DNA from: Antrihabitans cavernicola
GTDB lineage: Bacteria; Actinomycetota; Actinomycetes; Mycobacteriales; Mycobacteriaceae
Assembly: GCF_008297975.1 (NCBI RefSeq)
Contig: NZ_VLNY01000021.1
Coordinates: forward strand, 1 to 57,755
Length of the DNA: 57,755 nt
Direction: 5' to 3'
The stretch's first letter is position 1. Every line of letters begins with the position of its first letter. The notes below the pieces were generated by a model. The model did no database searches, had not been told where the DNA came from, and saw only the letters and a program-made list of their open reading frames with translations. The position numbers were made by a program, and so were the translations under genes. Below, one piece after another: positions 21,220 through 51,334 of the stretch.

Positions 21220-21282
21220 CGGCCGTTACGGCGCGTCCGCCGTCAAGAACATCGAATCCGTCGGTGCCATCGGCAACAGCAC

Positions 21283-25495: not shown

Positions 25496-25632
25496 TTCTG
25501 TACCGCACAAGCAGACCGCATAAGGGTGGAGTCGGAAGACCGACTCGCGCGGAAGCTATTCTCAAAATCAGTATTCGAAAGATTTTCGCCAATTTACGAA
25601 TTCATTCCTGCGATGAATAGTCAGGCGGTTTT

Positions 25633-32544: not shown

Positions 32545-32592
32545 CCACACGTTCGATCACACCAATCAACAGTTGACACAAGGAGATTCGTC

Positions 32593-33024: not shown

Positions 33025-33030
33025 TCGAAG

Positions 33031-33912: not shown

Positions 33913-33952
33913 ACTACTTCTGCATGACTAAAACCGAGGGAGACAAGTACTG

Positions 33953-34822
33953 ATGGGCACTCTGGATGGACGGGTGGCGATCGTCACCGGCGCCGGTCGC
34001 GGCATCGGCCGTGAACACGCACTGTTGTTCGCCCGGGAGGGCGCCAGCGTCGTGGTCAACGACCTCGGCGGCGCCAACGACGGCACCGGAGCCGACACGG
34101 GGCCGGCGCAACAGGTGGTCGACGAAATCGTCGCCGCCGGCGGCAAGGCCGCGGCCAACACCGACAACATCGCCACCTGGGACGGCGCCGAATCGGTGGT
34201 TGCTCAGGCCGTCAGCGAGTTCGGCCGCTTGGACGTGCTGGTCAACAATGCCGGCATTCTGCGTGACGCGTTCATCGCCGGCATGGACGAAGCGCAATGG
34301 GACTCCGTCGTCGCTGTGCATCTCAAGGGGCACGCGGCGACACTGCATCACGCCGCCGCGTACTGGAAGGCACAGACCAAGGCCGGGGAGCCGGTCAACG
34401 CGGCAGTCATCAACACCGCATCCGCCTCGGGCACGTTCATGCCCAACGCAGGCCAAGGCAACTACGGAGCCGCCAAGGCCGGAATCGCCGCCTTGACACT
34501 GGTTGCCGCCGACGAGTTGGAGCGCTACGGAGTCCGAGTCAACGCCATCGCACCGATCGCGCGCACCCGGCTCACGCTGGCGACACCGGGTATGGGTGCC
34601 CTCTTCGCCGAAGAGGTCCCCGAGGGTGAATTCGACGCGTTCGCCCCAGCGAACATCTCGCCGCTGGTCGCCTATCTGGCCGGCCCGGAATGCAAGCTCA
34701 CCGGCAAGGTCTATGCGGTGCAGGGCGGCGGAATTTCCGAACTCACCGGATGGCACGCCGTGTCGACCACCGAGAGCGACGGCCCATGGACCATCGCCGA
34801 TCTCGCGAACAAGTTGGGCTGA
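33953..34822 (+). CDS. SDR-family 3-hydroxyacyl-CoA dehydrogenase
   Basis: A 289-residue short-chain dehydrogenase: TGAGRGIG for NAD(P) binding at residues 12-19, NNAG, the serine in INTASASG and YGAAK (the YxxxK pair). The sequence VNDLGGANDGTGADTGPAQQ is characteristic of the multifunctional enzyme type 2 (HSD17B4-like) dehydrogenase group. It would oxidise the 3-hydroxyacyl-CoA made by the MaoC hydratase. The ATG follows AGGGAG by 8 nt. Part of the operon with short intergenic gaps. Confidence 0.92.
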   Translation: MGTLDGRVAIVTGAGRGIGREHALLFAREGASVVVNDLGGANDGTGADTGPAQQVVDEIVAAGGKAAANTDNIATWDGAESVVAQAVSEFGRLDVLVNNAGILRDAFIAGMDEAQWDSVVAVHLKGHAATLHHAAAYWKAQTKAGEPVNAAVINTASASGTFMPNAGQGNYGAAKAGIAALTLVAADELERYGVRVNAIAPIARTRLTLATPGMGALFAEEVPEGEFDAFAPANISPLVAYLAGPECKLTGKVYAVQGGGISELTGWHAVSTTESDGPWTIADLANKLG

Positions 34823-34833
34823 GGAGCGCAATC

Positions 34834-37044: not shown

Positions 37045-38186
37045 CCGGGGTGGGCCCACTCGCCGGACTGCGGGTAATCGAGATCGCCAGCCTCGCACCC
37101 GCACCGTTCGGCTGCATGATCCTCGCAGACCTGGGTGCAGAAGTGATCCGGGTCGAACGAGCCGGCGACGCCGGTGCGGGGCTGCTCGCCCCGTCCGGCG
37201 TCCTGGACCGGGGTCGAAGCTCCATCGCCGTAGACCTCAAGACGGCCGAGGGACGAGAGATCGTCCTGAAGTTGGTCGAGACCGCGGATGTCTTCGTCGA
37301 AGGCTTTCGCCCAGGCGTTGCCGAGCGCATCGGAGTCGGGCCGGACGAGTGCCTTGCTCGCAATCCGCGGCTGATCTACGGCCGCATGACCGGCTGGGGT
37401 CAGGACGGGCCGCTCGCGCAGCGCGCCGGCCACGACATCAACTACATCGCGATCGCGGGTGCGCTCGATCCCATCGGCCAGGCCGGTGAACGTCCGATGC
37501 CGCCGATGAACCTGTTGGGCGACTTCGGTGGCGGCGGACTGATGCTGGTGATGGGAATCCTGGCGGCGTTGCACGAGCGGACCACATCGAATCGCGGGCA
37601 GGTTGTCGACACGTCGATGGTCGAAGGAGCTGCGCTGCTGACCGCGTTCATGCACGGCATGCATGCCGTCGGGCTGTGGGACGAGGGGCGTGGCGAGAAC
37701 ATGCTCGACACCGGTGGCGCGTTCTACGACACCTACGAATGCGCCGACGGTCGACACGTTGCCGTCGGATGCGTCGAGCCGCACTTCTACGCCGAAATGC
37801 TCGGCCTACTCGGCTTGGCGGACGAGGAGTTGCCCGGCCAGTACGACCTCGACGAATCCGCCCCACTGCGCAAGCGCCTCGCCGACGTCTTCGCCACCCG
37901 GACCCGCGACGAATGGGCAGAGGTATTCGCCGACTCCGATGCCTGTGTGTCGCCGGTGCTGTCGCCCTGGGAGGCGCACAACCATCCGCACAACCAGGCG
38001 CGCGAAACGTTCGTCGACGTCGGTGGGATCCGCCAACCCGCGCCCGCACCCCGATTCAGCCGAACTCCCGCGCCGACCCCCGCCCCCGCGCCCGGCGTCG
38101 GTGCCGACACCGACGACATTCTGGGCAGACTTGGTCACAGCCCGGCGGACATCGCGCAACTGCGCACCGCCGGTGTCGTCGAATGA
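37041..38186 (+). CDS. CaiB/BaiF family protein, alpha-methylacyl-CoA racemase-like
   Basis: A 381-residue protein starting at the ATGA overlap. Family III CoA-transferase fold: GLRVIEIASLAPAPFGCMI, LGAEVIRVERAG, FVEGFRPGVAERIGVG. The racemase catalytic pair is recognisable as His in RAGHDINYIA and Asp in PMNLLGDFGGGG, and YDTYECADGRHVAVGCVEP is also typical of AMACR. It would interconvert the R and S 2-methylacyl-CoA epimers so that dehydrogenases can act. The Pro/Ala-rich stretch near the C-terminus (TPAPTPAPAPG) is unusual. Cotranscribed with its neighbours. Confidence 0.9.
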   Translation: MTGVGPLAGLRVIEIASLAPAPFGCMILADLGAEVIRVERAGDAGAGLLAPSGVLDRGRSSIAVDLKTAEGREIVLKLVETADVFVEGFRPGVAERIGVGPDECLARNPRLIYGRMTGWGQDGPLAQRAGHDINYIAIAGALDPIGQAGERPMPPMNLLGDFGGGGLMLVMGILAALHERTTSNRGQVVDTSMVEGAALLTAFMHGMHAVGLWDEGRGENMLDTGGAFYDTYECADGRHVAVGCVEPHFYAEMLGLLGLADEELPGQYDLDESAPLRKRLADVFATRTRDEWAEVFADSDACVSPVLSPWEAHNHPHNQARETFVDVGGIRQPAPAPRFSRTPAPTPAPAPGVGADTDDILGRLGHSPADIAQLRTAGVVE

Positions 38187-39688
38187 GCACGCTCGGCGAG
38201 GAGCAGGAGTTCCGTGTCGTCGTCGTCGGAGCCGGCCTTGCCGGTCTGGCGGCGGCCTACCGCTTGGAGCAGGCAGGGATCACCGACTTCGTGGTGCTCG
38301 AGAAGGCCGATCGAGTCGGCGGTACCTGGCGCGACAACACCTACCCCGGCTGCGGCGTCGACATACCCGCACCGTTGTATTCCTTTTCGTTCAACCCGAA
38401 CCCGGCGTGGGAACACAACTTCGCCCTGCAGCCGGAGATCCTCGCCTACATCGACGACACCGTCAACAAGTTCGATCTCGCGAAGTACCTGCGGTTGCGG
38501 ACCGAGCTGATCGAGGCGGCGTGGTCGAACGAACATAGGCGCTGGATCCTCGAGACGGACAACGGCTCGTACGTGGCGCAGTACGTCATCTTCGCGGCAG
38601 GCCCGATCACCGAACCGACGATCCCCGACGTCGACGGCCTCGATGACTTCGAGGGCGATGTCTTCCACTCCGCCCGCTGGAATCACGACGTCGATCTGAC
38701 CGGCAAACGAGTCGCGGTGGTGGGGACGGGTGCATCCGCGGTGCAGTTCGTCCCCGAAATCCAACCCGCAGTGGAGCAACTACACGTATTCCAGCGCACC
38801 GCGTCCTGGGTGGTCCCGCGTCTCGACATCCCGTTCCCCGGCGCGGTGCGATCAGGATTTAAGCACCTGCCGGTGACCCAGACCGGGCTGAGGACGGTCA
38901 CCGACGGCATTCTGCGTTCGATCAGCACGATGATGCGCCACGAGCGCGGCGCCCGCTTACTGAATCCGATCGGTCTTGCCTGGCTACGCCTGCAGGTGCC
39001 CGACCCGGAGCTACGCGCGAAGCTGACCCCCTCGTTCACCCTCGGCTGCAAGCGGTTGCTGTTGTCGAACTCGTATCTTCCGGCGTTGGCGATGCCGAAC
39101 GTCGAGCTGATTCCGCAGGCGCTCGCCGGTGTCGGAACGCGCCACGTGGTGGCCGCCGACGGGACCGAGCGCGAGGTCGACGTCATCATCTTCGGCACCG
39201 GTTTCGACGTGAGTCATCCGCCGATCGCCAGTCGCATCCGGGACATGGACGGCAACCTGCTCGGCGACCGGTGGGCCGACAGCCCGGAAGCGTATCTGGC
39301 GACCACCACGCCGCGGGTGCCGAACGCGTTCATCATGCTGGGTCCGAACATCCTGGTCTACAACTCGTTCCTCGGTCTCGCCGAGTCTCAACTCGACTAC
39401 GTGATCGACGCCCTGCGGCGGCTCGAGCAAGACGGTGTGGAGGTCTTCGACGTTCGCGACGAGCCTTTCCGTACCTTCAACGACGATGTTCAGAAAGCGT
39501 TGGGGCACACGGTCTTCAACAAGGGCGGCTGCAGCAGCTACTACCTGGATGCGCAGGGGCGCAACTTCACCGCATGGCCGTGGGCCACCGGTACGTTGCG
39601 CCGCCGGCTCTCGCGATTCGACGTCGACAACTACACCACCCTCCCGTACCGCACCGAAATTCGAGACTCCGCACAACCGACACGATGA
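38183..39688 (+). CDS. Flavin-containing (Baeyer-Villiger-type) monooxygenase
   Basis: A 501-residue flavoprotein starting at an ATGA overlap with the previous stop. FAD site: VVVVGAGLAGLAAAYRLEQ; NADPH site: KRVAVVGTGASAVQFVPEI. Between them lies the Baeyer-Villiger fingerprint FEGDVFHSARWNHD (FxGxxxHxxxW pattern), with VGGTWRDNTYPGCGVDIP upstream. Such enzymes insert oxygen beside a ketone to form an ester or lactone. The alpha/beta hydrolase encoded 1.2 kb downstream could open the product. The substrate is unknown; a cyclic or side-chain ketone is an inference. Confidence 0.92.
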   Translation: MSTLGEEQEFRVVVVGAGLAGLAAAYRLEQAGITDFVVLEKADRVGGTWRDNTYPGCGVDIPAPLYSFSFNPNPAWEHNFALQPEILAYIDDTVNKFDLAKYLRLRTELIEAAWSNEHRRWILETDNGSYVAQYVIFAAGPITEPTIPDVDGLDDFEGDVFHSARWNHDVDLTGKRVAVVGTGASAVQFVPEIQPAVEQLHVFQRTASWVVPRLDIPFPGAVRSGFKHLPVTQTGLRTVTDGILRSISTMMRHERGARLLNPIGLAWLRLQVPDPELRAKLTPSFTLGCKRLLLSNSYLPALAMPNVELIPQALAGVGTRHVVAADGTEREVDVIIFGTGFDVSHPPIASRIRDMDGNLLGDRWADSPEAYLATTTPRVPNAFIMLGPNILVYNSFLGLAESQLDYVIDALRRLEQDGVEVFDVRDEPFRTFNDDVQKALGHTVFNKGGCSSYYLDAQGRNFTAWPWATGTLRRRLSRFDVDNYTTLPYRTEIRDSAQPTR

Positions 39689-39698
39689 AGGCCATTCG

Positions 39699-40844
39699 AT
39701 GACCGCATACCGCTCCCCCTGGCTCGACGACGATCTCGACGCATTGCGAGAACTCGCACGATCCTTCTGTGACAAAGTAATCAAGCCGAACACCGAAAAG
39801 TTCATCGAACAACATCACGTCGATCGCGACATGTGGAATACCGCGGGCGAACTCGGCCTGTTGTGTATGTCCATCCCGGAAGAGTTCGGCGGCGGCGGCG
39901 GAACGTTCGCCCACGAGGCAGTGCTGATCGAAGAGCAGGCCCGCATCGGCGACACGTCGTGGGGTCAGACCGTGCACAGCGGCATCGTCGCGCACTACCT
40001 CAACGCGTACGGCACCGACGAACAGAAACGGCAGTGGCTGCCGAAGATGGCCAGCGGCGAGGTGGTCGGTGCGATCGCGATGACCGAACCCGGCACCGGT
40101 TCGGACCTGCAGGCGATCAAAACCAAGGCGATCCGGGAAGGCGACGACTACGTCGTGAACGGGTCGAAGACCTTCATCACCAACGGTGCGCAGGCCGACC
40201 TGATCATTGTGGTGGCCAAGACCGACATCGCCGAAGGCGCAAAGGGAATTTCGCTGGTGCTGGTCGAGGCGGACCGCGAAGGATTCCGCCGCGGCCGGGT
40301 GCTCGACAAGGTTGGACAGAAGGGCCAAGACACCTCGGAACTGTTCTTCGACGATGTGCGCGTACCGACGTCGAACCTGCTGGGCACCGAGGAGGGGCAA
40401 GGCTTCATCCAGTTGATGCTGCAGCTGCCGCAGGAACGTCTGGTCATCGCGGTCGGCTCGATCGCCGGTATCGAGACCGCGCTCGAACACACGCTGCGCT
40501 ACACCAAGGACCGGGAAGCCTTCGGACGGCCGGTGTTTGGGTTTCAGAACACCAAGTTCAAACTCGCCGAGGTTGCCACGGACGCCCGCATCGGGCGGGT
40601 CTTCGTCGACGACTGCATCGTCGCGCACCTGCGCGGTGAGCTCGACATCCCGACGGTCGCCATGGCGAAATGGTGGACGACGGAACGGGCGATGGTGGCC
40701 CTCGACGAGTGCCTGCAGTTGCACGGCGGCTACGGCTACATGACGGAATACCCGATCGCGCGGCTGTGGGCGGACAACCGCGTTCAGAAGATCTATGCCG
40801 GCACCAACGAGATCATGAAAGAGATCATCGCCCGTTCCCTCTGA
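39699..40844 (+). CDS. Acyl-CoA dehydrogenase
   Basis: A 381-residue single-domain enzyme; ATG 39699 is 10 bp after the monooxygenase stop. Family signatures: AIAMTEPGTGSDLQAIKTK, KTFITNGAQADLIIVV, ERLVIAVGSIAGIETALEH, LQLHGGYGYMTEYPIARLW and the C-terminal QKIYAGTNEIMKEIIA, whose glutamate is the expected catalytic base. It introduces the 2,3-double bond into an acyl-CoA and passes electrons to ETF. Together with the double-domain dehydrogenase it gives the operon two desaturation steps. Normal length. Confidence 0.93.
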   Translation: MTAYRSPWLDDDLDALRELARSFCDKVIKPNTEKFIEQHHVDRDMWNTAGELGLLCMSIPEEFGGGGGTFAHEAVLIEEQARIGDTSWGQTVHSGIVAHYLNAYGTDEQKRQWLPKMASGEVVGAIAMTEPGTGSDLQAIKTKAIREGDDYVVNGSKTFITNGAQADLIIVVAKTDIAEGAKGISLVLVEADREGFRRGRVLDKVGQKGQDTSELFFDDVRVPTSNLLGTEEGQGFIQLMLQLPQERLVIAVGSIAGIETALEHTLRYTKDREAFGRPVFGFQNTKFKLAEVATDARIGRVFVDDCIVAHLRGELDIPTVAMAKWWTTERAMVALDECLQLHGGYGYMTEYPIARLWADNRVQKIYAGTNEIMKEIIARSL

Positions 40845-40896: not shown

Positions 40897-41931
40897 ATGA
40901 AGAAAAGAACGACCATCGCCACCGTCGCGGGGACCACCATCGGAATGGGGACCGCGGCGGTGCTGCGGGCGCTCGGTGCCGCGCGCGCAAATCATGATCG
41001 CGAGTGGGACAACCCGCTGCTGCGCACACCGGTCGACCCGACCGTAGTTGCCGTCCGCACCCGGGACGGCGCGAGGCTGCGGGTGCACATGTATGGTCCC
41101 ACCGACGGGGAGCCGATAGTGCTCAGCCATGGTTGGACGTGTTGTATCGAATACTGGAGTCCGCAGATCAATGTTCTGGCCCGCAAGTACCGGGTCATCG
41201 CCTACGACCAGCGTGGTCACGGCCGCAGTGAATCCGGCAGCGATAGGTTCGGCCCGGCCATGCTCGCCGACGACCTCGCCTGTGTACTCGACGCGACGAT
41301 TCGTCCCGGCGAAAAAGCTGTACTGGTCGGTCACAGCATGGGCGGTATGAGCATCATGGCGTGGGCAGGCGCACATCCAGAGCAGGTCGACCGCTACGCG
41401 CACGCGATGCTGCTGGCGAATACGGCGAGCAGCGACCTCATCTCCAAAACCGTCATCCCGATCCCTTCCGGTCGGCTACCGATTCCGCAGGCGCTCAGCC
41501 GCGCCGTTCTCGGAACCCCAGTCGCCACGCCTCCGCACGCGGTGATTCGGCGGGCCTTCCAACTCGCCGTCATGTCGCCGACATCGACGGTCGAGGAAGT
41601 GGACTTCTGCTTCGGTATCGTCGCGGCGTGCAGGGGACGTATCCGGGGCCGGTGGGGTTCGGCATTGAGCCACCTCGACATCACCGCAGCTCTCGACAGT
41701 CGGAGCGTTCCGACAACCGTGTTGGCGGGCCGGCTCGATCGGCTCACTCCGCCAAGGCACTCCCGAAAACTCGCGGCGGCTTTGGCGAGCAACGGTGTGC
41801 TCGTTCGCTTCGACATACTGCCCGGTGTCGGACACATGAGCAACATCGAAGCCACAGACCACTTCAACGATGAGATCGTGCGCCTTCGCACATCGCGAAC
41901 CTTCCGCTCCGACCTGACCGGCGCGAGCTGA
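40897..41931 (+). CDS. Alpha/beta hydrolase
   Basis: A 344-residue protein. The N-terminus (MKKRTTIATVAGTTIGMGTA) is basic then weakly hydrophobic, so membrane association is possible. The hydrolase core shows LSHGWTCCIEYWSPQ (oxyanion region), YDQRGHGRSE, the nucleophile elbow VGHSMGGMS, an aspartate in LAGRLDRLTPP and the histidine in PGVGHMSNIE. It would hydrolyse an ester, lactone or thioester. The last plus-strand gene of the operon, 52 bp after the dehydrogenase; it converges with the amidohydrolase gene. Confidence 0.92.
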   Translation: MKKRTTIATVAGTTIGMGTAAVLRALGAARANHDREWDNPLLRTPVDPTVVAVRTRDGARLRVHMYGPTDGEPIVLSHGWTCCIEYWSPQINVLARKYRVIAYDQRGHGRSESGSDRFGPAMLADDLACVLDATIRPGEKAVLVGHSMGGMSIMAWAGAHPEQVDRYAHAMLLANTASSDLISKTVIPIPSGRLPIPQALSRAVLGTPVATPPHAVIRRAFQLAVMSPTSTVEEVDFCFGIVAACRGRIRGRWGSALSHLDITAALDSRSVPTTVLAGRLDRLTPPRHSRKLAAALASNGVLVRFDILPGVGHMSNIEATDHFNDEIVRLRTSRTFRSDLTGAS

Positions 41932-42031: not shown

Positions 42032-43321
42032 TCAGCCCCCAGGTGTCAGCTCACCGGCGAGATGATCGTAGGCGACGTGGGTGTGCAGGCGCACTCCGGT
42101 GACAAGTTGGTCGTCGTCGGCGTAGAAGTGCGGATTGTGGTTCGGAACCGCACCCCGCCCTCCCTCGATCGGGACGAGTCGGGTGCCGTCCACTATCTCG
42201 GTGTCCTGCACGCCCAACATGACATAGAGGCCGCCGAACTTGTTTACGAACTCCGACACGTCGTCGTAGCCGAGCGTCGGCGGGGTCTCGAGCACCTTGT
42301 CGTCCCCGGCGACCCGGCGCAGGGTCGGCAGGCCGGCGTCGACCCATTCCTGGGTGTGGTGTACCGCCGGCACGTCTTGGAGGAACTCGCATTTCGCAGT
42401 GCAGCCGTAGGCGGCCGCGCACCCGTGAGCGAGCGTCGACACTCGCTGCTGCACCTCGGCCATGTCTGATTCGACCGAGCATCGGATCGTGCCCCACATC
42501 GTGACGGTCTCGCCGATGATGTTGAACCGGCCCACGTCCTCGATGTGACCGAGGCTGACGGTGACCGGGTCGAAAGCGTTGGTCTGCCGGTAGATCTGAC
42601 CGATACCGGTCAAGATCGCCCCGACCGCGGGCATCGGATCGACACCCATCCACGGGGTCGATCCGTGCACCTGTGTGCCCCCGATTTCGATCTTGATCAT
42701 GCACGAGGCGCCGTACTGGTTACCCACCCGATAGCCCACAACCCCCTTGGGGATCGGGCCGACGTGCATACCGAACACCATCGTCGGTGCTGGATCGCTG
42801 AGAGCGCCCTGGTCGAGCATCTCTCGGGCGCCGCCCTTCTCGTCGATGGGCGGCCCCTCCTCGGCCGGCTGAAACACGAACAGCACTGTCCCCGGCAACC
42901 GCTCACGCATCCCGGCCAGCACGGTCGCCGCGCCGAGCAGCATCGCCGTATGGCAGTCGTGCCCGCACGCATGCGAGACCGGGAACGGTCCGCCCGGATA
43001 ATCCTCGTCAATCACCTCCGATGCGAACGGCACCCCCGACAGATCCTTGACCGGTAACGCATCGATATCGGCGCGCAGCGCGATCACCCGCTCACCCGAG
43101 CCGCCACCACGCAGAACTCCGACCACGCCATGCCCTGCGATGTCGGTGCGCACTTCGTCGAGTTCCAGCGACCGGAGGTGTTCGGCGATCAATCTTGCCG
43201 TCTCGGCCTCCCGGTTCGACAACTCAGGATGCTGATGGATGTGGTGGCGCCACTTGACGACCTGATCGGTCACCTCCCCGGCTCGGCGGTCCAACTCGTC
43301 ATGCAGTGCGGAATCACTCAT
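42032..43321 (-). CDS. M20-family amidohydrolase/peptidase
   Basis: A 429-residue enzyme from ATG 43321, chosen because TTGGAGG precedes it although the frame is open further upstream. Metal ligand regions: RADIDALPV, the SHACGHDCHTAMLLGAA cysteine/histidine site, QPAEEG and HNPHFYADDD at the C-terminal end. WRHHIHQHPELSNREAETA is typical of N-acyl amino acid and indole-3-acetyl conjugate hydrolases. It probably frees a carboxylic acid from an amide conjugate. It lies 176 bp downstream of the aldehyde dehydrogenase on the same strand. Confidence 0.92.
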   Translation of the reverse strand: MSDSALHDELDRRAGEVTDQVVKWRHHIHQHPELSNREAETARLIAEHLRSLELDEVRTDIAGHGVVGVLRGGGSGERVIALRADIDALPVKDLSGVPFASEVIDEDYPGGPFPVSHACGHDCHTAMLLGAATVLAGMRERLPGTVLFVFQPAEEGPPIDEKGGAREMLDQGALSDPAPTMVFGMHVGPIPKGVVGYRVGNQYGASCMIKIEIGGTQVHGSTPWMGVDPMPAVGAILTGIGQIYRQTNAFDPVTVSLGHIEDVGRFNIIGETVTMWGTIRCSVESDMAEVQQRVSTLAHGCAAAYGCTAKCEFLQDVPAVHHTQEWVDAGLPTLRRVAGDDKVLETPPTLGYDDVSEFVNKFGGLYVMLGVQDTEIVDGTRLVPIEGGRGAVPNHNPHFYADDDQLVTGVRLHTHVAYDHLAGELTPGG

Positions 43322-43497
43322 ACGAACCTCCAAGGAGAATGTGGTGGTCACTTCCGGCAGCATCAGCCTTGCCCGACGCGCATTCGCGGCGACTCGTCCA
43401 AGGATAAATGCCCGCACTGGTCCCCGGTGGCGTCATCCGCGGACTGCGCTGCGCCCCACTCGACGAGCCAGGATGTGGCGGTGTACGGGTAAGTCCG

Positions 43498-45054
43498 TCA
43501 GCGTCGCGTCGGCAGTTGCTGGACGAGGCTGATCAGCGGCGTCAGCGCTTTCTGCCATAACTCGGTGGACAGGCCGAACGGTGGGTCGAGGTTGAACACT
43601 CGCTGGGTGGCGACCGTCTGCGATTCGCAGTACTTCAGCAGGCCCTCGCGTCCGTGTCGGCGACCGATTCCGGATGCGCCCATCCCGCCCATCGGCGCAG
43701 CGGTGCTGCCGAATGCCGGTGCGTATCCTTCGTCCACATTGACTGTGCCGGTCCGGAGTTGTACCGCGATGGCCTCGCCCTCACCCGCTGTTCGGGCCCA
43801 CACGCTGGCGTTGAGTCCGTACTCGGTGTCGTTTGCGCGGGCGATGGCCTCATCGACGTCAGCGACCGGATAGATCGACACCAGCGGACCGAAGGTCTCG
43901 TTGCGTGCGCACTCCATGTCGTCGGTGACGCCGGTGAGGACGGTCGGCTCGTAGAACAGCGGGCCGAGGTCGGGTCGGGCGTTTCCCCCCGTGACCACGG
44001 TGACGCCCTTCGCCCGCGCGTCGTCGACGTGACCGGACACGGTCTTGACCTGGTCTTCAGATGCCAGGCTGCCCATGTCGGAGGTGAAGTCGTACGTGCT
44101 GCCAAGCTTCATGTTGCGCACGTGCTCGGCAAATTTGGCGGTGAACTCGTCGGCGACCGATGCTTCGACATAGATTCGTTCGATCGAGATGCACACCTGT
44201 CCGGAGTTGGCGAAGCAGGCTCGGGTAGCCGCTTTGGCGACCTTGTCGAGGTTGGCACCTTCGGCGATGATCATCGGATTCTTCCCGCCCAACTCGGCGG
44301 AGAAACCGATCAACCGGTGCCCTGCCTGCTCGGCAAGGAGGCGACCGGTCCCCGTCGATCCGGTGAACATCAGGTAATCGCAGCTCTGCGCGATAGCGGT
44401 GCCCACCACCGAGCCTGGTCCGGGAACCACCGCGAACAGCTCCCGTGGGAGCCCGGCCTGGTAGAGCAGTTCCGCGTTCGCCAACGTGCAGTAGGGGGTT
44501 TGGCTGTCGGGTTTGACAACGACGGCGTTGCCGGCGAGCAGTGCGGGGAGTGCGTCGGAGATCGACATCGCCATCGGGTAGTTCCAGGGCGAGATGATGC
44601 CGACGACGCCCTTGGCTTGATAGTTGACCACCGTCTTGGTCAGTGCCGGCAGCATGCCTTGCACCCGCTCGGGTTCGAGCAGCTTCGGTGCTTCACGCGC
44701 GTAGAAACGCGCATTGAGCATGATGTCGAGGATTTCTTCCTGAGCGGCGGAGCGCGCCTTCCCCGTTTCGGCTTGGGCCACGTCCATCAGGAACCCGCGA
44801 TTCGAACGCACCAGCGTGCGGTATCGCTCGATGATCCGGGCACGATCTCGCACCGAGGTCCGCGTCCAATCCGTCTGCGCTGCTCGGGCCTTCGCCACTG
44901 CCGCCGCTACATCGTCGGCTGTTCCGATCGGAATCTCCGCCAACGGTGCGCCGGTGAACACTTCCTCGATCGTCCTGGTCGGGCGGGTGTCAGGGTGCTC
45001 GATTGCGACGAGTGAACGTAAGCGTGTCAACGACGCGGCGGACGGAGCGGGCAT
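43498..45054 (-). CDS. gabD2: Succinate-semialdehyde dehydrogenase (GabD2-like)
   Basis: A 518-residue aldehyde dehydrogenase from ATG 45054, the length of mycobacterial GabD2; the frame is open to 45495 but the extension is shadow-like. Motifs: GIISPWNYPMAMSISDALP, FTGSTGTGRLLAEQAG, the catalytic glutamate in AELGGKNPMI and cysteine in FANSGQVCISIERIYVEA, and NETFGPLVSIYP. The product oxidises succinate semialdehyde or related aldehydes with NAD(P). In this context it could remove an aldehyde from substrate breakdown. The symbol follows the closest-looking subfamily. Confidence 0.9.
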   Translation of the reverse strand: MPAPSAASLTRLRSLVAIEHPDTRPTRTIEEVFTGAPLAEIPIGTADDVAAAVAKARAAQTDWTRTSVRDRARIIERYRTLVRSNRGFLMDVAQAETGKARSAAQEEILDIMLNARFYAREAPKLLEPERVQGMLPALTKTVVNYQAKGVVGIISPWNYPMAMSISDALPALLAGNAVVVKPDSQTPYCTLANAELLYQAGLPRELFAVVPGPGSVVGTAIAQSCDYLMFTGSTGTGRLLAEQAGHRLIGFSAELGGKNPMIIAEGANLDKVAKAATRACFANSGQVCISIERIYVEASVADEFTAKFAEHVRNMKLGSTYDFTSDMGSLASEDQVKTVSGHVDDARAKGVTVVTGGNARPDLGPLFYEPTVLTGVTDDMECARNETFGPLVSIYPVADVDEAIARANDTEYGLNASVWARTAGEGEAIAVQLRTGTVNVDEGYAPAFGSTAAPMGGMGASGIGRRHGREGLLKYCESQTVATQRVFNLDPPFGLSTELWQKALTPLISLVQQLPTRR

Positions 45055-45226: not shown

Positions 45227-45874
45227 TCAGAGATCTGGTCGGACTGTTCGGGCGGCGGCGACGGCCATTTGCGCGATTTCGTCGACCAGATCGTGGCGAG
45301 AAAGTGTGACGTCGCCGTCCAGCCAGGCCGTGACGGCTCGGGCTGTGCCCACCACGAGGATGAGTGCAACCAGGTTGAGTCGCTGGCGTTGGGCGGGGGT
45401 GCTGTCGGTGTCGGCGAGCACGAGCTGTACCAGTAGGCCGGCGAGGCGCTGCTCGGCGCTGTCGACTGTGCCGTTGTGCACGTGGTTGCCGACAACGTCG
45501 ACGTACACCTTCGCCTTGCGCGGGTCGTCGGTGAGGATAGCGACGACCCGTTCGATCCCGGCGTGGACGCGGGTGAGCAGGGGCATCGCCGTGCTGGACA
45601 GTGAGCTGATCACGGCGTCGGTGATCTCGGCGATGAGGGTGTCGATCAGTGCTGCGAAGAGTTCGTCTCGGTTGCGGAAACTTTCGTAGAAGTAGCGTTT
45701 CGACAGGCCTGCCTCGGCGCAGATGGCATCCACGGTGGTGCCCATCATTCGCTGTGCGGCGGCAATGGTGTAGCAGGCGTCGAGCAGGCCGACTCGGCGC
45801 GTGCGGCGCCGTTCGTCTGCGCTGATCCCCCGAAACGGCCTGATCACCTGCGTCACCCGAACATCTTGACACAT
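45227..45874 (-). CDS. TetR-family transcriptional regulator
   Basis: A 215-residue protein (ATG 45874; a GTG 6 codons on is an alternative). The helix-turn-helix region is GLLDACYTIAAAQRMMGTTV, DAICAEAGLSKRYFYESFR, NRDELFAALI. The C-terminal helices (RRVHAGIERVV-like TRVHAGIERVVAIL, NLVALILVVGTARAVTAWL) form the effector domain. It diverges from the reductase/diiron gene pair at 46020-48424 and probably controls that pair; a promoter-like sequence lies in the intergenic region. Effector unknown. Confidence 0.92.
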   Translation of the reverse strand: MCQDVRVTQVIRPFRGISADERRRTRRVGLLDACYTIAAAQRMMGTTVDAICAEAGLSKRYFYESFRNRDELFAALIDTLIAEITDAVISSLSSTAMPLLTRVHAGIERVVAILTDDPRKAKVYVDVVGNHVHNGTVDSAEQRLAGLLVQLVLADTDSTPAQRQRLNLVALILVVGTARAVTAWLDGDVTLSRHDLVDEIAQMAVAAARTVRPDL

Positions 45875-45895
45875 GCCCGTTCCGACTTCTACATT
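45866..45895 (+). promoter_or_regulatory. Candidate promoter for the reductase-diiron operon
   Basis: TTGACA at 45866-45871 and TACATT at 45890-45895 with an 18-bp spacer. It overlaps the TetR start region and lies about 125 bp upstream of the chosen reductase start, supporting the shorter reductase. Confidence 0.4.
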
Positions 45896-46019
45896 CTCGA
45901 CACGGCAGCGTTCTCAGTTTTGGCGTCGACTCCAAATCGTCGACTGCAGTCACGGCGTGAGGTTGCCGTGGCGATGTGGGGCTCGCATCGGGGTCGAAAC
46001 GACCGGGATCGAGGATCGA

Positions 46020-47147
46020 ATGCGCGCAGTGATGACAGCGTTGTCGAGGGTCGAACAGCGGCTCCCGGGTCGGGGCATGTTCGGACCGGCACCGATCACC
46101 ATTGCCCGGCCGAACGGCCCCGCGAAACGATGGAGCAGGGGCACCCCGGCCGCGACGTCCACCCGGGTGCGAGTGGTGAGCGTGGTCCACGAAACGGCCG
46201 ACGCGGTGACGCTCGTGCTCCAAACCGTCGATGGTCGGCCGGTGCCGTATCGGGCAGGGCAGTACCTGACGCATTGCTTTCCGATAGACGGGTCCGTGGT
46301 CAAGCGCGCGTACTCGATCAGCGAACCCGAGGGTGGGCGCTTGGCCTGCACGGTGAAGTGCATCGAGGGAGGAGTGGTGTCCGGGTTCGTCGCTTCCCGG
46401 ATCGCGATTGGCTACGAATACACGGTGCTGGGCCCGTCGGGCGATTTCGTAATGCCCGAGGATCCGCGCGCGCCGCTGGCGTTCCTGGCGGCGGGCAGTG
46501 GGATCACTCCGGTGATCAGCATGATCGAAACAGCGTTGCACCGAGACACGGTGGCACCGATCCGGCTCGTCTACGCCGCGCGATCAGAGCCGGAGGCGAT
46601 CTTCGCGTCCCGCCTTGCAGCGCTGGCCATCCAGAATCCGCATCTCAGTGTGTTCATGGAATGGTCGCGCTCGAGATCGGCCGGCGGTGCGCCGGGCCGG
46701 CTCACCGGCGAGCAGGCCGCAAACTCGCTCTCCGCCGGTGCGGCCACCCACGTGTTTCTGTGCGGACCCACCGCACTGATGGATGCAACCGCGACCGCAC
46801 TGCACGACCGCGGCCTGCCGGCTCAGCAGATTCATCGGGAGCGTTTCTATCCCGCCCCGCGGCACACCCAGCATTTGCCGGCCGGCCCGCAGACACTCCG
46901 GTTCGCCTCCTCGAACGCGACCGTGTCCCAGCGGCCCGGCGAGACGATCCTCGATGCCGGCCTGAGACACGGAGTGCGACTGGATTTCAGTTGCACAGTC
47001 GGCGGCTGTGCCGCCTGCAAGGTCCGGGTGCTCGACGGGAACGTCACCGTAGATGAGCCCAACTGCCTGACTGCCGAGGAACGAGCCGACGGGTTTGTGC
47101 TGGCCTGCTCGGCGTATGCCCTCGACAGCACAACCATCGACGCCTGA
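46020..47147 (+). CDS. Oxygenase reductase with FAD, NAD(P) and 2Fe-2S domains
   Basis: A 375-residue protein from ATG 46020 (MRAVMTALSRVEQRLPGRG). FAD domain with PYRAGQYLTHCFPIDG and VKRAYSISEPEGG; NAD(P) domain with LAAGSGITPVISMIETAL and FLCGPTALMDATATAL; C-terminal plant-type ferredoxin with FSCTVGGCAACKVRVLDG and, about 29 residues on, LACSAYA, giving the four cluster cysteines. This is the architecture of PaaE, KshB and the DesA3 partner Rv3230c. It passes electrons from NAD(P)H to an oxygenase. The obvious partner is the diiron protein 26 bp downstream. Confidence 0.93.
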   Translation: MRAVMTALSRVEQRLPGRGMFGPAPITIARPNGPAKRWSRGTPAATSTRVRVVSVVHETADAVTLVLQTVDGRPVPYRAGQYLTHCFPIDGSVVKRAYSISEPEGGRLACTVKCIEGGVVSGFVASRIAIGYEYTVLGPSGDFVMPEDPRAPLAFLAAGSGITPVISMIETALHRDTVAPIRLVYAARSEPEAIFASRLAALAIQNPHLSVFMEWSRSRSAGGAPGRLTGEQAANSLSAGAATHVFLCGPTALMDATATALHDRGLPAQQIHRERFYPAPRHTQHLPAGPQTLRFASSNATVSQRPGETILDAGLRHGVRLDFSCTVGGCAACKVRVLDGNVTVDEPNCLTAEERADGFVLACSAYALDSTTIDA

Positions 47148-47173
47148 ACCATTCGAACGAGGAGAACAAGGTC

Positions 47174-48424
47174 ATGAAAAATCCAGCCAAGGCGCCGATG
47201 GAGACGATGCTGCGTGGCCTGCCGATGCAAGCGCAGAACGAAATCCACAAAGCGATGGACAATATCGGCCTCGCCCTGTCGATCGAGAACCCGAAGGTCG
47301 CGGCCGCGCTCGCCCCCTCGGCGGTGCGAGGTCTTGTTCTTGGGGCGGGCAAACGCGGCGATCACGTCGACATGCAGGCCAACCACAGCGCCCACTACAC
47401 ATTGAGCTATCAGGGTGACTTCACCGAGATGTACGACCTGTACCGGCGGGCGGTCACCAATCAATGGGACGGCGACGCAGACCTGCCGTGGAACACCGAC
47501 GTCGCGCCCGATAATCATCAGGCCGCGATCCTGCCGCGCAGCTTCGTCCCGTTCGACGCGATCGAGGGATTCGGAGTTCGGCTCACCGCACTGGAAGAAC
47601 GGCGGCTGACCTGGGATGTGGCCGCATGGATCCTGAGCCAGTTCATGCACGGGGAACAGGGCGCGCTCTATGCCGCGGCGCAAGTCACCGAGAGCGTGCA
47701 GTGGATGGACGGCAAACTCTACGGCGCCACCCAGGTCATGGACGAAGGCCGTCACCTCGAAGTGTTCCTACGCTACCTCGACACGAAGCTGGAGAAGATC
47801 TATACCGTCAACGACAACCTGTTCGTGATCATCGACGACCTGATGACCGACGGGCGCTGGGACATCAAGTTCCTCGGTATGCAGATCATGATCGAGGGTC
47901 TCGCGCTCGGCGCCTTCACCACCATCTACCAGCAGACCCGTGAACCACTGCTCAAACAACTGTTGAAAATGGTGATTCAAGACGAGGCCCGTCACGTCCA
48001 CTACGGTGTGCTCGCGCTGCGTGAACATTTCACCAAGAACCTCTCCGAATCCGAACGACGTGAACGCGAGGACTGGGCGTACGAGGTCGCCCTGCTGATG
48101 CGCAACCGATTCAAGATGCGCGAGATCTACGACGAATGGTTCTCCCACAAGATCTCACTCAAGCGGTGGGACGAGGAAGTGCTGCAGGCGCCGGGCATGC
48201 TCGGCTTCCGCAACATCATGTTCCAGCGGTTAGTGCCCAACCTCGAATACATCGGCCTCATGAGCGACCGGATCAAAGCCCACTACGACAAATCAGGTCT
48301 CACCCAGTACCTCGGCGGTAAGAACGCCACCCAACTCACCGCCGACGAACTCACCGCCGAGCCTGACACCGGCGGTCACGACGATGAGATGCCTGCAGAA
48401 CTCCACAGTTTGATCACATCCTGA
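47174..48424 (+). CDS. Ferritin-like diiron oxygenase (R2-like)
   Basis: A 416-residue protein preceded by GAGGAG. Carboxylate/histidine boxes for a diiron site are seen in QFMHGEQGALYAAAQVTES, VMDEGRHLEVFLRYL, MIEGLALGAFTTIYQQ and IQDEARHVHYGVLALREHF, in the spacing of ferritin-like/ribonucleotide-reductase-R2-like oxygenases. It is cytoplasmic, with no signal or membrane segments. The reductase encoded immediately upstream fits as its electron donor. The substrate is unknown; lipid hydroxylation or desaturation is an inference from the fatty-acyl gene context. Confidence 0.88.
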   Translation: MKNPAKAPMETMLRGLPMQAQNEIHKAMDNIGLALSIENPKVAAALAPSAVRGLVLGAGKRGDHVDMQANHSAHYTLSYQGDFTEMYDLYRRAVTNQWDGDADLPWNTDVAPDNHQAAILPRSFVPFDAIEGFGVRLTALEERRLTWDVAAWILSQFMHGEQGALYAAAQVTESVQWMDGKLYGATQVMDEGRHLEVFLRYLDTKLEKIYTVNDNLFVIIDDLMTDGRWDIKFLGMQIMIEGLALGAFTTIYQQTREPLLKQLLKMVIQDEARHVHYGVLALREHFTKNLSESERREREDWAYEVALLMRNRFKMREIYDEWFSHKISLKRWDEEVLQAPGMLGFRNIMFQRLVPNLEYIGLMSDRIKAHYDKSGLTQYLGGKNATQLTADELTAEPDTGGHDDEMPAELHSLITS

Positions 48425-48574
48425 ACGACGCGGGCCGCACAGTCGGGACGGCGCGCCTGGCATGCTTCAAGATCCGAACCATCACGTCGAGGGACCAGTG
48501 CCCAGCTGCGCCACTACGTCGCTACCGCACGATCGGATAGATAAGGATTTGACGCCGAAGACCTTGTCGTCGTA

Positions 48575-50302
48575 TCACTTGCGGACGCGATGTAGCGGCG
48601 AGAGCCGCAGAAGCCGATGCGGACGTGCCGCAGCCAGAGTGACCATTTCGGCTCGATCGACGATCTTGTCGCGGACCCGGTGCTGCACTGCCCCGCGTTG
48701 TAGCTCCACCCGGTCGATCGCCTGCCAACCGGCGCGATCGACGACGGCGGGTTGGCGTCGACTCACGAAACGTTTCAACGCCGAAGCCTTGGTCGTGGGT
48801 GCCGTCAGGAGCCCACAGTTGAAGTCGTCGACGAGAGCGTTGACCGTCTCCTGAGCGCAGGACTTGTTGGTGCCGATGTATCCGGTCGGACCACGCTTGA
48901 TCCATCCGGCCACGTACGTGCCGGGAACACGATCGCCATCGACGCGGTCCAATACTCGCCCATCGGAGTTGGGCACGACTCCCCCCGCCTCATCGAAAGG
49001 TAGACCGGTCACGGGGATGCCACGGTATCCGATCGAGGTGAGGACCAGGCCCGCATCGAGAGTTTCGGCATGCCCGGTCGGCTTGGCCCGCAGCACACCG
49101 TCGTCACCGAGCACGAGCGAGGTCGCCACCAACTCCACTCCCGCGACGTGGTCTTCACCAACGATCCGCTTCGGTGCCGACAGATACCGCAGCGTGATCT
49201 GCTTGCGACCTGGCGTGGCCGAATCGCGCGTACTCAACTCCCGCAGCATCCGCAGTTTCTGGACAACCGAATGGTCCAAGCTGCCGTCACGTTCGCGCCT
49301 GGCGGTCACCTCGTCGAGTTCGAAGTGCGCTGGATCAAGTCTCACACGCAGGTTCGGTACGGCGAGCAGACCGGCGAACTCTGGGACAGTGAAGGCCGAT
49401 TGCGCGACTCCGCGTCGTCCGACGATCACCACCTCCTCGATGCGGCTGTTCCGTAATGCTTCCAACGCCGGAGCAGCGATATCGGTGGCGGCGAGCTGGT
49501 CCGGGTCAGCGGTAAGGATCCGGGCCACGTCGAGTGCGACGTTGCCGTTGCCGATGATCACCGCGCGAGGATGCGACAGGTCGAACGGGTGGTGCGCGTG
49601 GTCGGGGTGGCCGTTGTACCAGGCGACGAAGTCGGTGGCCGACGCACATCCAGGCAGGTCGACGCCGGAAATGTTCAGCCGCCGGTCCGAGGAGGCGCCC
49701 ACCGCATAGATGACGGCGTGGTGGTGCTCGAGCAGATCTTGATGTGTCAGATCGGTACCGACCTCGACGTTGAGGTAGTACTCGAATCCCGGCTGGTCGG
49801 CGATAGTTTCGAATAGTTCGCTGACCTGCTTGGTGTGTTGATGGTCGGGTGCTACTCCGGCACGGACAAGCCCGTGTGGCGTGGGAAGCCGGTCGAAAAC
49901 GTTGACTTGCACGTCGGGTTGGGTCAGCAACTCGTCGGCGGCATACATCGCGGCGGGTCCGGAGCCGACGATCGCTACGCGCAGCGCAGCCACGTCTTGG
50001 CGTGCGGCCGGCGGCGGCGTCACGGGCGCCAGCAGGGGACGCTGCCGGGGCTCCCTGTAGAAGTCGGCGTTGATCCCCAGGTATCGCTGCTGAGAATCCG
50101 TCAGCTTGGACTGCGGCACGATCGCATCGACCGGACAGGCCGACACACAGGCCCCGCAGTCCACGCAGGACGCAGGATCGATATGCAGCATTTCCGCGGT
50201 CAGAAAATCGGGTTCGTCCGGCGTCGGGTGGATGCAGTTCACCGGACACGCGTACACACAGGACGCGTCGCTGCAACACGACTGGGTTACCACATGAGGC
50301 AT
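48575..50302 (-). CDS. fprB: Ferredoxin-NADP reductase with N-terminal ferredoxin (FprB-type)
   Basis: A 575-residue fusion, the same length as mycobacterial FprB. An N-terminal 7Fe/8Fe-type ferredoxin (about 1-85) shows CSDASCVYACPVNCIHP and CVDCGACVSACPVDAI. The adrenodoxin-reductase-like part follows: VAIVGSGPAAMYAADELL (FAD), TPHGLVRAGVAPDHQHTK, AVIIGNGNVALDVARIL and IVGRRGVAQSAFT (NADPH), AGWIKRGPTGYIGTNKSCA. The domain carries electrons from NADPH to iron-sulfur or diiron partners. It starts 15 bp after the stop of the AurF-like gene, so the two form an operon. Its 3-prime end converges with the plus-strand diiron gene. Confidence 0.95.
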   Translation of the reverse strand: MPHVVTQSCCSDASCVYACPVNCIHPTPDEPDFLTAEMLHIDPASCVDCGACVSACPVDAIVPQSKLTDSQQRYLGINADFYREPRQRPLLAPVTPPPAARQDVAALRVAIVGSGPAAMYAADELLTQPDVQVNVFDRLPTPHGLVRAGVAPDHQHTKQVSELFETIADQPGFEYYLNVEVGTDLTHQDLLEHHHAVIYAVGASSDRRLNISGVDLPGCASATDFVAWYNGHPDHAHHPFDLSHPRAVIIGNGNVALDVARILTADPDQLAATDIAAPALEALRNSRIEEVVIVGRRGVAQSAFTVPEFAGLLAVPNLRVRLDPAHFELDEVTARRERDGSLDHSVVQKLRMLRELSTRDSATPGRKQITLRYLSAPKRIVGEDHVAGVELVATSLVLGDDGVLRAKPTGHAETLDAGLVLTSIGYRGIPVTGLPFDEAGGVVPNSDGRVLDRVDGDRVPGTYVAGWIKRGPTGYIGTNKSCAQETVNALVDDFNCGLLTAPTTKASALKRFVSRRQPAVVDRAGWQAIDRVELQRGAVQHRVRDKIVDRAEMVTLAAARPHRLLRLSPLHRVRK

Positions 50303-50317
50303 GAAGGCGCTTCTCCG

Positions 50318-51334
50318 CTACGTCGTCGCCCGGACCGAAACCCGGCTCGGTTCACTGCGGAACCGGGAGGCCTTTCCGTCGATCTTCAACATCTTCCACA
50401 GCCGACGTGAGACCGGGTTCATCAGGCCGGCTTCCTGAGCCAACATGCGCACGTCCGCGAAGTAGTCGCGCAGCGTCTGCCGCGACTCGGGCTTCTCCCA
50501 GAACAGGTCCTTCTTCACGGACTCCGGGATGTCGAACTTCGACCAGAACTCGGGCGGCGGAATCACGATGACGTCGCACAGCACACGCATCGCGATCGGG
50601 AACGCCAACGAGATTGCGAACCGCCCGGGTGGCGACATTTCCGGGATGTGCCGACGCAGGAACTCGTGGGCGAACGAAATGTGTCGTGCTTCTTCGGCAA
50701 CGTGAATCGCCATCACGCTCGACATGATCGGGTGGATCTCGGCACCCGAGCGAAGAATGGTCTTCTGAATGTGGTCGATCGGCTCCTCACCGGCCAGGAT
50801 CCCGATGAAGAAGATGATCGGGAAAGCGGACCCCGCCAACGGCAGGAACGGTGCGACAACGCGAAACCACTTCCGGCCGCCCGGTACGTCGACACCGATC
50901 CGATTCACCATCTCCTGAAACATCAGGGTGTGATTGCCCTCTTCGATCACCTCGTGAGTGCAGTATCGAAACTCCGGGGAACCGTTCGCCGCGCGGAACA
51001 CGTACTGCAGGACCCCACCCATGAGGACGGTTTCGAACTGCAAACCAACCTTGGCGATGTTCGCCTGACGCCACATCCCGATGGCGATCTTCTTCTCGTC
51101 CGGAAGCGCCAGATACCAGGGGTGATTGCCCAGCGGGTCGGCCTTGGGAAGGATCCATCGCGGATCGCTACCGGTCACCTCGAACTCGGACGAGTCCCAC
51201 GTAATGTCGACGTAGGGGTCGAAATGCCGGTGTACAGACCCCTCGGACAGTAACGTCAGGGTCTCTTCATACGACAAGTCGAAGTCATCGGACCGGTGAT
51301 CCGACCCGCGTGCTGGCGCATTCGAAAGCGTCAT
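50318..51334 (-). CDS. AurF-like diiron oxygenase
   Basis: A 338-residue paralogue of the protein at 23103, similar from end to end. Ligand boxes: CTHEVIEEGNHTLMFQEM, GEEPIDHIQ and IHVAEEARHISFAHEF. The N-terminal third (SVHRHFDPYVDITWDSSEF, DPRWILPKADPLGNHPWYL) repeats the paralogue's SVHKRFDPYLDIDWDSPAF pattern. GAGGGAG precedes the ATG. It is followed directly by the FprB-type reductase gene, making a self-contained oxygenase plus electron supply. AurF relatives N-oxygenate amines, but this subgroup's substrate is unknown. Confidence 0.9.
   Translation of the reverse strand: MTLSNAPARGSDHRSDDFDLSYEETLTLLSEGSVHRHFDPYVDITWDSSEFEVTGSDPRWILPKADPLGNHPWYLALPDEKKIAIGMWRQANIAKVGLQFETVLMGGVLQYVFRAANGSPEFRYCTHEVIEEGNHTLMFQEMVNRIGVDVPGGRKWFRVVAPFLPLAGSAFPIIFFIGILAGEEPIDHIQKTILRSGAEIHPIMSSVMAIHVAEEARHISFAHEFLRRHIPEMSPPGRFAISLAFPIAMRVLCDVIVIPPPEFWSKFDIPESVKKDLFWEKPESRQTLRDYFADVRMLAQEAGLMNPVSRRLWKMLKIDGKASRFRSEPSRVSVRATT

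What the first reader, a model, noticed from the sequence alone, without database searches (positions are those of the whole stretch)
45227..51334. Diiron oxygenase module with two electron-delivery proteins
A reductase (FAD, NAD, 2Fe-2S) is paired with an R2-like diiron protein on one strand. A ferredoxin-FprB fusion is paired with an AurF-like oxygenase on the other, converging on each other, with a TetR gene. A second AurF-like gene lies at 23103. Three diiron oxygenases and two redox partners beside a lipid-type catabolic operon suggest a coordinated hydroxylation or N-oxygenation system. It may be the entry reaction that supplies the operon, which lacks an obvious activation step.
Basis: partly seen in the sequence, partly recalled or inferred. 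Interest (0 to 1): 0.7.

Follow-up and report, generated by a model that had tools for sequence, protein, structure and literature searches.

The report
Two independent diiron oxygenase gene cassettes
Two separate oxygen-using enzyme kits, each with its own electron supplier, happen to lie side by side here; one is a widespread gene pair of unknown substrate that a few related bacteria also carry next to the same fat-breakdown operon, the other is a rare add-on.

Summary
The genes are real and at the stated places, but they are not one module. (1) AurF-type oxygenase plus ferredoxin-FprB fusion (51334-48575, minus) is a conserved operon: of 397 genomes of the order, 72 have a close AurF relative, and all 72 carry at least one AurF directly upstream of FprB. 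(2) TetR/reductase/R2-like (45227-48424) is a separate, rare cassette, found in four Mycobacterium species and Mycolicibacter acidiphilus (reductase/R2-like alone in Smaragdicoccus niigatensis); none of these 6 loci has AurF or FprB in the up to 10 kb read on each side, and three congeners lack the R2-like protein. The adjacency is seen only on this IS-rich contig. The operon does encode a CoA-transferase. Both AurF proteins keep the seventh histidine typical of N-oxygenases; the R2-like protein lacks it. Substrates are unknown.

The parts
45227..45874 (-). TetR-family regulator of the reductase/R2-like cassette (divergent)
   Evidence: PF00440; 49-54% relative in the same place in 5 of 6 related loci
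46020..47147 (+). PaaE-like reductase (FAD, NAD, C-terminal 2Fe-2S); ORF opens at 45873, start at 46020 inferred
   Evidence: Pfam; start and ribosome-binding site; 55-60% relative beside R2-like in 6 of 6 loci
47174..48424 (+). R2-like six-ligand diiron protein, probable oxygenase, remote relative of AurF
   Evidence: E161 E191 H194 E241 E271 H274 invariant in 17 sequences; R2/R2lox-type fold; hhalign to AurF 97.8%
48575..50302 (-). FprB-type fusion: ferredoxin (7Fe type by its cysteines) + FprA-like NADPH reductase
   Evidence: cysteine pattern
50318..51334 (-). AurF-type diiron oxygenase (AurF50), 15 bp upstream of FprB
   Evidence: PF11583 355 bits; E101 E132 H135 E183/184 H211 E214/215 H218 invariant in 21 sequences
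23103..24104 (+). second AurF-type oxygenase (AurF23), no FprB of its own
   Evidence: PF11583 340 bits; 71% relative beside the same operon in G003
30547..31254 (-). TetR2, divergent regulator of the lipid-type operon
   Evidence: PF00440 25.4 bits; a relative stands beside the thiolase or beside ACAD1 in most operon loci
31354..38186 (+). operon: SCP2-type thiolase, SRPBCC protein, MaoC hydratase, SDR, fused double acyl-CoA dehydrogenase (ACAD1), family III CoA-transferase
   Evidence: the run thiolase-SRPBCC-MaoC-SDR-ACAD1 is found in 56 of 59 places, the exceptions being G553 (contig end), G404 and G423
38190..39688 (+). FMO/Baeyer-Villiger-type monooxygenase between CoA-transferase and second ACAD; not at this spot in G003 (ORF opens 37676; domain from about 38210)
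   Evidence: G003 order
39723..40844 (+). second acyl-CoA dehydrogenase (ORF opens at 39435; domain from about 39723)
40897..41931 (+). alpha/beta hydrolase, where G003 has an acyl-ACP-thioesterase-like gene
42032..45054 (-). M20 amidohydrolase (42032-43417) and succinic-semialdehyde-dehydrogenase-like gene (43498-45054) between operon and cassette; not assigned to either

Best explanation
Two independent self-contained oxygenase systems lie next to each other on a mobile-element-rich contig. System A, AurF50-FprB, is a conserved operon of Mycobacteriales. Electrons pass NADPH to FAD (FprA-like half) to the ferredoxin half to the diiron site of AurF, which activates O2, most likely to oxygenate nitrogen (seven-ligand site). 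AurF23 is a second AurF without its own reductase and probably shares FprB (inferred). In this genus and in genus g87 the AurF genes stand beside a TetR2-controlled acyl-CoA operon or part of it, and probably act on a substrate or intermediate of that pathway (inferred). System B, TetR / PaaE-like reductase / R2-like, is a rare cassette in which NAD(P)H electrons pass FAD and 2Fe-2S to a six-ligand diiron oxygenase. It was inserted between operon and AurF-FprB in this strain's lineage and has no demonstrated link to either. Shown: gene content, ligands, distribution, synteny. Inferred: electron flow, N- versus C-oxygenation, substrate.
For: AurF directly upstream of FprB on the same strand (gap 12-214 bp, median 36) in 72 of 72 genomes with an AurF hit at E<=1e-100, out of 397 searched; 29 of 29 top FprB loci besides the window's; own second pair on C23 and pairs in G001, G002, G003. 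Reductase/R2-like: reductase adjacent in 6 of 6 named loci, no AurF or FprB within the flanks read; no AurF or FprB in 20 of 20 further R2-like loci, in 19 of which this reductase is not found either (M. gastri L043 has it); not in 3 congeners; in M. ostraviense cassette and AurF-FprB lie 1.61 Mb apart. Operon link: G003, g87, AurF within 200 bp of TetR2 in 5 of 58 other places against about 0.03 expected by a crude Poisson model. H211 present in AurF50 and AurF23; such a seventh histidine is called characteristic of N-oxygenases in passages of PMC13061610.
Against: 53 of 58 other operon places show no AurF in the stretch read (some stretches cut by contig ends; one, G487, has an FprB relative only), so AurF is not required for the operon; congeners G001 and G002 have the AurF-FprB pair without the 80% operon. 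In g87 only SRPBCC, ACAD1 and TetR2 of the operon were found. The window's operon groups with the own C3 copy, beside which no AurF, CoA-transferase or ACAD2 was found, so the window may be a mosaic. TetR2-adjacent AurF proteins are not one clade. The Poisson model assumes 7 AurF per 6-Mb genome and independent loci, and the idea came from G003 and G404; the new cases alone (G423, G592, G709 of 56) give P 3e-6, and G592 and G709 alone 3e-4. No activity, expression or interaction data.
Confidence: 0.65

Rival explanations
1. One coordinated module: reductase, R2-like, AurF50, FprB and AurF23 jointly feed the operon.
For: All lie within 28 kb on one contig. Smaragdicoccus niigatensis carries both the reductase/R2-like pair and AurF50-FprB-AurF23 beside a shortened operon, on different contigs.
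Against: No R2-like match in the stretches around the operon in G003, G404, G423, G592 or G709 or near 29 FprB loci; a TetR of its own in 5 of 6 loci; not found in the 3 congeners.
Confidence: 0.1
2. AurF50-FprB is a general housekeeping or stress pair unrelated to the operon; its place beside the operon in G000 and G003 is inherited chance, and AurF23 likewise.
For: The pair is present in genomes without the operon. Its M. gastri form lies beside a class V aminotransferase instead. In M. tuberculosis Rv0885 is reported under CRP and in hypoxia experiments and fprB in iron deprivation (passages of PMC4117774, PMC4916473, PMC9577196).
Against: AurF genes of different subtypes recur within 200 bp of TetR2 in three genera.
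Confidence: 0.25
3. FprB is a P450 redox partner and AurF is only a genomic neighbour.
For: FprB is listed among P450 redox partners of M. tuberculosis (passages of PMC6469627 and PMC9577196); the former says that characterising its electron transfer to P450s is still to be done.
Against: AurF-FprB adjacency in 72 of 72 genomes with an AurF hit. I did not search the flanks for P450 genes; the neighbours scanned include none.
Confidence: 0.15
4. The R2-like protein is an R2lox- or RNR-R2-type protein rather than an oxygenase.
For: Fold hits; weak Pfam/NCBIfam scores; the profile search of solved structures ranks an R2lox homologue first (E 1.7e-5), then ADO and R2lox entries, and lists no AurF entry up to E 10.
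Against: Below both cut-offs (18 vs 33.6; 30.8 vs 194 bits); F198 at the usual radical-tyrosine place (place recalled); full-length profile match to AurF (97.8%; no equal test against R2lox was made); dedicated reductase in 6 of 6 loci.
Confidence: 0.12

Closest known systems
AurF / CmlI arylamine N-oxygenases (PF11583)
   Same: Family score far above cut-off; same seven-ligand pattern including the extra histidine (ligand list from passages of PMC13061610).
   Different: Only a weak direct match to the AurF structures (E 0.0073); FprB-type partner next door, whereas the Dob3 paper says its cluster encodes none; acyl-CoA operon rather than a biosynthetic cluster nearby.
Rv0885-Rv0886 (fprB) of M. 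tuberculosis
   Same: Same gene pair by layout: the M. gastri copy (G368) lies divergent from a class V aminotransferase, matching the CRP site reported for serC and Rv0885 (passage); FprB = Rv0886 (passage). That Rv0885 is AurF-like is recalled.
   Different: The window pair lies near an acyl-CoA operon; 61% AurF and 55% FprB identity between window and M. gastri.
dnfABC (DnfA AurF-like, DnfB FAD/NAD/2Fe-2S reductase)
   Same: AurF-clan oxygenase with a neighbouring reductase (passages of PMC9478400).
   Different: Here the FAD/NAD/2Fe-2S reductase goes with the R2-like protein, and AurF goes with an FprB fusion; a DnfC relative was not looked for.
R2lox / RNR R2 / aldehyde-deformylating oxygenase
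   Same: Fold class and six-ligand E..ExxH..E..ExxH pattern.
   Different: Below every curated cut-off; N-terminal extension of about 60 residues shared with L043; own reductase.
Phenylacetyl-CoA epoxidase reductase PaaE
   Same: Best NCBIfam hit of the reductase (TIGR02160, 181 bits).
   Different: Cut-off 420.8 not reached; adjacent genes are TetR and R2-like, not PaaA/B/C.

Membership tests
AurF family (AurF50, AurF23) | PF11583 over its curated cut-off | tested here: met
   355.1 and 340.2 bits against 29.6
AurF family (AurF50, AurF23) | six metal ligands plus seventh histidine of N-oxygenases | tested here: met
   E101 E132 H135 E183/184 H211 E214/215 H218 invariant in 21 sequences; list from PMC13061610 passages
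AurF family (AurF50, AurF23) | N-oxygenation of an amine | not testable with these tools
   needs enzyme assay
FprB ferredoxin-reductase fusion | N-terminal ferredoxin fused to FprA-like FAD/NADPH reductase | tested here: met
   FdxA-type hit (59.6 bits, below the FdxA cut-off of 125, as expected for a fusion) and FprA hit; cysteines
AurF-FprB operon | AurF directly upstream of FprB | tested here: met
   window gap 15 bp; 72 of 72 genomes with an AurF hit
RNR small subunit (PF00268) | curated score for the R2-like protein | tested here: not met
   18.0 bits against 33.6
R2lox | NCBIfam NF006200 score for the R2-like protein | tested here: not met
   30.8 bits against 194
R2lox | Val/Tyr crosslink residues | tested here: inconclusive
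   A164 and M236 stand at the expected spacing, but the R2lox positions are recalled and no R2lox was aligned
Aldehyde-deformylating oxygenase | PF11266 over cut-off | tested here: not met
   20.0 bits against 28
AurF family (R2-like protein) | PF11583 over cut-off | tested here: not met
   10.8 bits for the window protein and 14.2 for M. gastri; wider relatives L044 and L052 pass with 55.6 and 32.0
AurF family (R2-like protein) | seventh histidine | tested here: not met
   V267 at the equivalent place, nearly invariant
Phenylacetyl-CoA epoxidase PaaABCE | PaaE score and PaaA/B/C neighbours | tested here: not met
   181 against 420.8 bits; neighbours are TetR and R2-like

The most novel reading that the evidence does not exclude
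A TetR2-controlled acyl-CoA operon has repeatedly recruited AurF-type N-oxygenases, in places as a twin AurF set sharing one ferredoxin-reductase fusion, so that a nitrogen-bearing lipid or acyl intermediate is N-oxygenated during catabolism. This would be a catabolic role for a family known from natural-product biosynthesis and hydroxylamine oxidation, and would make FprB the native AurF reductase across Mycobacteriales.
Probability: 0.2. Interest if true: 0.65.

Novelty: new variant of a known kind. Interest (0 to 1): 0.45.

Why it matters
The native electron donor of AurF-family oxygenases is often unknown (for Dob3 so stated in PMC13061610, passages); an AurF-FprB operon conserved in Mycobacteriales offers a direct, testable answer and an alternative to reading FprB as a P450 partner. 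The recurrent placement of AurF genes beside one acyl-CoA operon points to a pathway in which to look for the substrate. The reductase/R2-like cassette is an uncharacterised diiron branch that comes with its own reductase and so should be open to reconstitution.

Tried and rejected
Rejected: a single three-oxygenase module (distribution); R2-like as a member of R2lox, RNR R2 or ADO by curated cut-offs, though the solved-structure profile search leans that way. My first idea that the weak 25% hits in congeners were R2lox was wrong for the one tested: of the five translated, L010 scores 246.6 bits as AurF; the other four were not scanned. Neighbours of wider R2-like relatives gave no common function, nor did those of the cassette. 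A shared TetR operator: a palindrome GTAGGAAC-N6-GTTCCTAC stands in the TetR/reductase gap of Mycolicibacter acidiphilus (L102) and imperfectly in M. gastri and M. ostraviense, but only degenerately in the window, so it was not used. Promoter and terminator scans were at chance level. Plasmid search: the eight best rows shown (of 60 and 70 matching records) matched only integrase/regulator and group II intron DNA, so the contig cannot be called a plasmid. The dehydrogenase query used was out of frame; it was redone. The second structure-prediction job and the other fold searches were not used. Paper searches: no held paper has both fprB and AurF or Rv0886 and diiron; in the listings I saw no title or abstract on these cassettes. 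Of the papers cited I saw passages only; PMC12090724 and PMC10401708 were seen in passages and not used.
Full report
What is there. The window is the whole of contig C14 (57,755 bp) of a 5.66-Mb assembly, G000. All five genes are open frames: TetR 45227-45874 (-), reductase 46020-47147 (+; start inferred from ribosome-binding site), R2-like 47174-48424 (+), FprB fusion 48575-50302 (-), AurF50 50318-51334 (-). AurF23 is at 23103-24104 (+). AurF50 and AurF23 match PF11583 with 355 and 340 bits and keep all seven ligands, invariant in 21 family sequences. FprB is a ferredoxin fused to an FprA-like reductase.

The R2-like protein. Curated families do not name it. Its AlphaFold model (mean pLDDT 71.9; residues 1-81 and 398-416 below 50) resembles R2, NrdF and R2lox (TM-score by query length at most 0.46, so fold class only). 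E161, E191, H194, E241, E271 and H274 are invariant among 17 relatives. Its family placement is open. A profile of the family aligns over most of its length to AurF (hhalign 97.8%), and of four members scanned L044 and L052 pass the AurF cut-off while the window and M. gastri proteins do not. Against that, the same profile searched over solved structures ranks an R2lox homologue (E 1.7e-5), aldehyde decarbonylases and R2lox first and lists no AurF entry up to E 10. It lacks the seventh histidine, V267 standing there. The Dob3 paper (PMC13061610, passages) calls that histidine characteristic of N-oxygenases, so C-oxygenation or another oxidation is more likely for this protein; this is inference.

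The two halves are independent. AurF-FprB: of 397 genomes of the order, 72 have an AurF hit at E<=1e-100 to AurF23 (at most five candidates per genome were scored), and all 72 have at least one AurF directly upstream of FprB on the same strand (75 of 110 AurF hits; 75 of the 130 FprB hits copied from a truncated list). All 29 top FprB loci besides the window's show the pair, as do G001, G002, G003 and the own C23 copy. In M. gastri (G368, identified by its 84,960-base contig) the pair stands divergent from a class V aminotransferase. This matches the Rv0884c-Rv0886 layout of M. tuberculosis (FprB = Rv0886 from PMC6469627 passages; CRP site of serC and Rv0885 from PMC4117774 passages; that Rv0885 is AurF-like is recalled). 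Reductase/R2-like: close relatives (71-79%) were found in 6 loci of the species-level genome collection, a scan limited to two exact peptide patterns: M. innocens, M. gastri, M. persicum, M. ostraviense, Smaragdicoccus niigatensis, Mycolicibacter acidiphilus. The reductase is adjacent in 6 of 6 and the TetR in 5 of 6; none has AurF or FprB in the 10 kb (less at contig ends) on each side. In one search, 58 of 397 genomes have an R2-like hit at E<=1e-10; apart from the window and one M. gastri locus (78%) the identities are 33-43%. Of 20 fetched loci none had AurF or FprB nearby, and only M. gastri L043 had this reductase. In the three congeners only 24-25% hits were found. In M. ostraviense the cassette (5.57 Mb) and the AurF-FprB pair (3.96 Mb) are 1.61 Mb apart on what must be the same scaffold, given its size.

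The AurF genes and the operon. The operon is thiolase (SCP2 type), SRPBCC, MaoC, SDR, fused double acyl-CoA dehydrogenase (ACAD1), then CoA-transferase and a second acyl-CoA dehydrogenase (ACAD2), with divergent TetR2. It is not short of an activation step: a family III CoA-transferase is encoded, and in this window also an FMO/Baeyer-Villiger-type enzyme and a hydrolase. In congener G003 the block reads AurF50, FprB, then on the other strand a thioesterase, ACAD2, CoA-transferase, ACAD1, SDR, MaoC, SRPBCC, thiolase, then TetR2 and AurF23 head to tail, with no R2-like match and no reductase match in that 40 kb; reductase relatives of only 33-34% appear in other stretches, L119 of G001 and L193 of G003. 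Against G003 the window has an FMO between CoA-transferase and ACAD2 and 7.7 kb (hydrolase, amidohydrolase, dehydrogenase, cassette B) between ACAD2 and FprB; AurF23 lies elsewhere. In S. niigatensis (G403, the same contig and coordinates as G404) and in G423 of the same genus g87, AurF50-FprB-AurF23 stand on one strand next to TetR2, SRPBCC and ACAD1; thiolase, MaoC and SDR were not found there.

How general is that link. One search found ACAD1 at E<=1e-250 in 58 of 395 family genomes (59 places). I examined the surroundings (up to 20 kb, 40 kb for some; several cut by contig ends) of all 58 places other than the window. Five have an AurF gene in the stretch: G003, G404, G423, G592, G709 (genera g1, g87, g3). 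One more (G487) has an FprB relative only. In all five the AurF match lies within 200 bp of TetR2 (2-172 bp). With 7 AurF per 6-Mb genome (the own genome's count, assumed for all) 0.03 such cases are expected (P about 1e-10 for five). The idea arose from G003 and G404, so the fair test is the new cases: G423, G592 and G709 of 56 give P 3e-6, G592 and G709 alone 3e-4. Treat this as a rough guide. The adjacent AurF proteins fall in several clades, so different AurF types came to the same spot. Against this, 53 of 58 places show none, three further places outside the family (G333, G238, G017) show none, and the own second operon copy on C3, the window copy's closest relative (support 94), shows none.

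How it most likely works. AurF-FprB: NADPH electrons pass FAD and the fused ferredoxin to the diiron site, O2 is activated and probably inserted on nitrogen. The passages of PMC13061610 say that the Dob3 cluster encodes no redox partner, and PMC9478400 describes dnfA with a 2Fe-2S reductase gene dnfB, so a dedicated partner next to an AurF gene is plausible. M. tuberculosis papers discuss FprB with P450s (passages). No held paper joins fprB with AurF or Rv0886 with diiron. Cassette B: NAD(P)H, FAD, 2Fe-2S, diiron; substrate unknown.

Verdict. Confidence in the composite explanation was lowered slightly (0.68 to 0.65) on checking, because the g87 operon is shortened and the placement of the R2-like protein is less settled than first written.

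Noticed in passing
window 2456-3370, 11203-12396, 12354-13691, 15355-16833, 53611-54948, 56150-57217: Two tyrosine integrases near the contig ends, a Mutator-type and two IS110-type transposases and a group II intron RT: an IS-rich mobile or plasmid-like contig; its right end matches integrase genes of Rhodococcus plasmids.
   Followed up: partly
G000:C3:124133-126472 (L183, L184): Second copy of the lipid-type operon; thiolase 96% but MaoC and ACAD1 only 77-81% identical to the window copy, a gradient that suggests gene conversion or a mosaic.
   Followed up: partly
G000, seven AurF places: Seven AurF-family genes in one genome, two of them on this contig.
   Followed up: no
G403 (Smaragdicoccus niigatensis): Eight FprB-like matches at E<=1e-100 in one genome.
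   Followed up: no
window 24748-27264: LuxR-type regulator (weak hit) followed 12 bp later by a multicopper oxidase.
   Followed up: no
window 19894-22440: Wax ester synthase/diacylglycerol acyltransferase beside a divergent 408-aa ORF without a Pfam hit.
   Followed up: no
L102, TetR/reductase gap: Perfect palindrome GTAGGAAC-N6-GTTCCTAC, imperfect in M. gastri and M. ostraviense, a candidate TetR operator.
   Followed up: partly
L115:12309-14571: Next to AurF23 in G003: a protein with both a Cro-type HTH and a TetR domain, then another acyl-CoA dehydrogenase.
   Followed up: no
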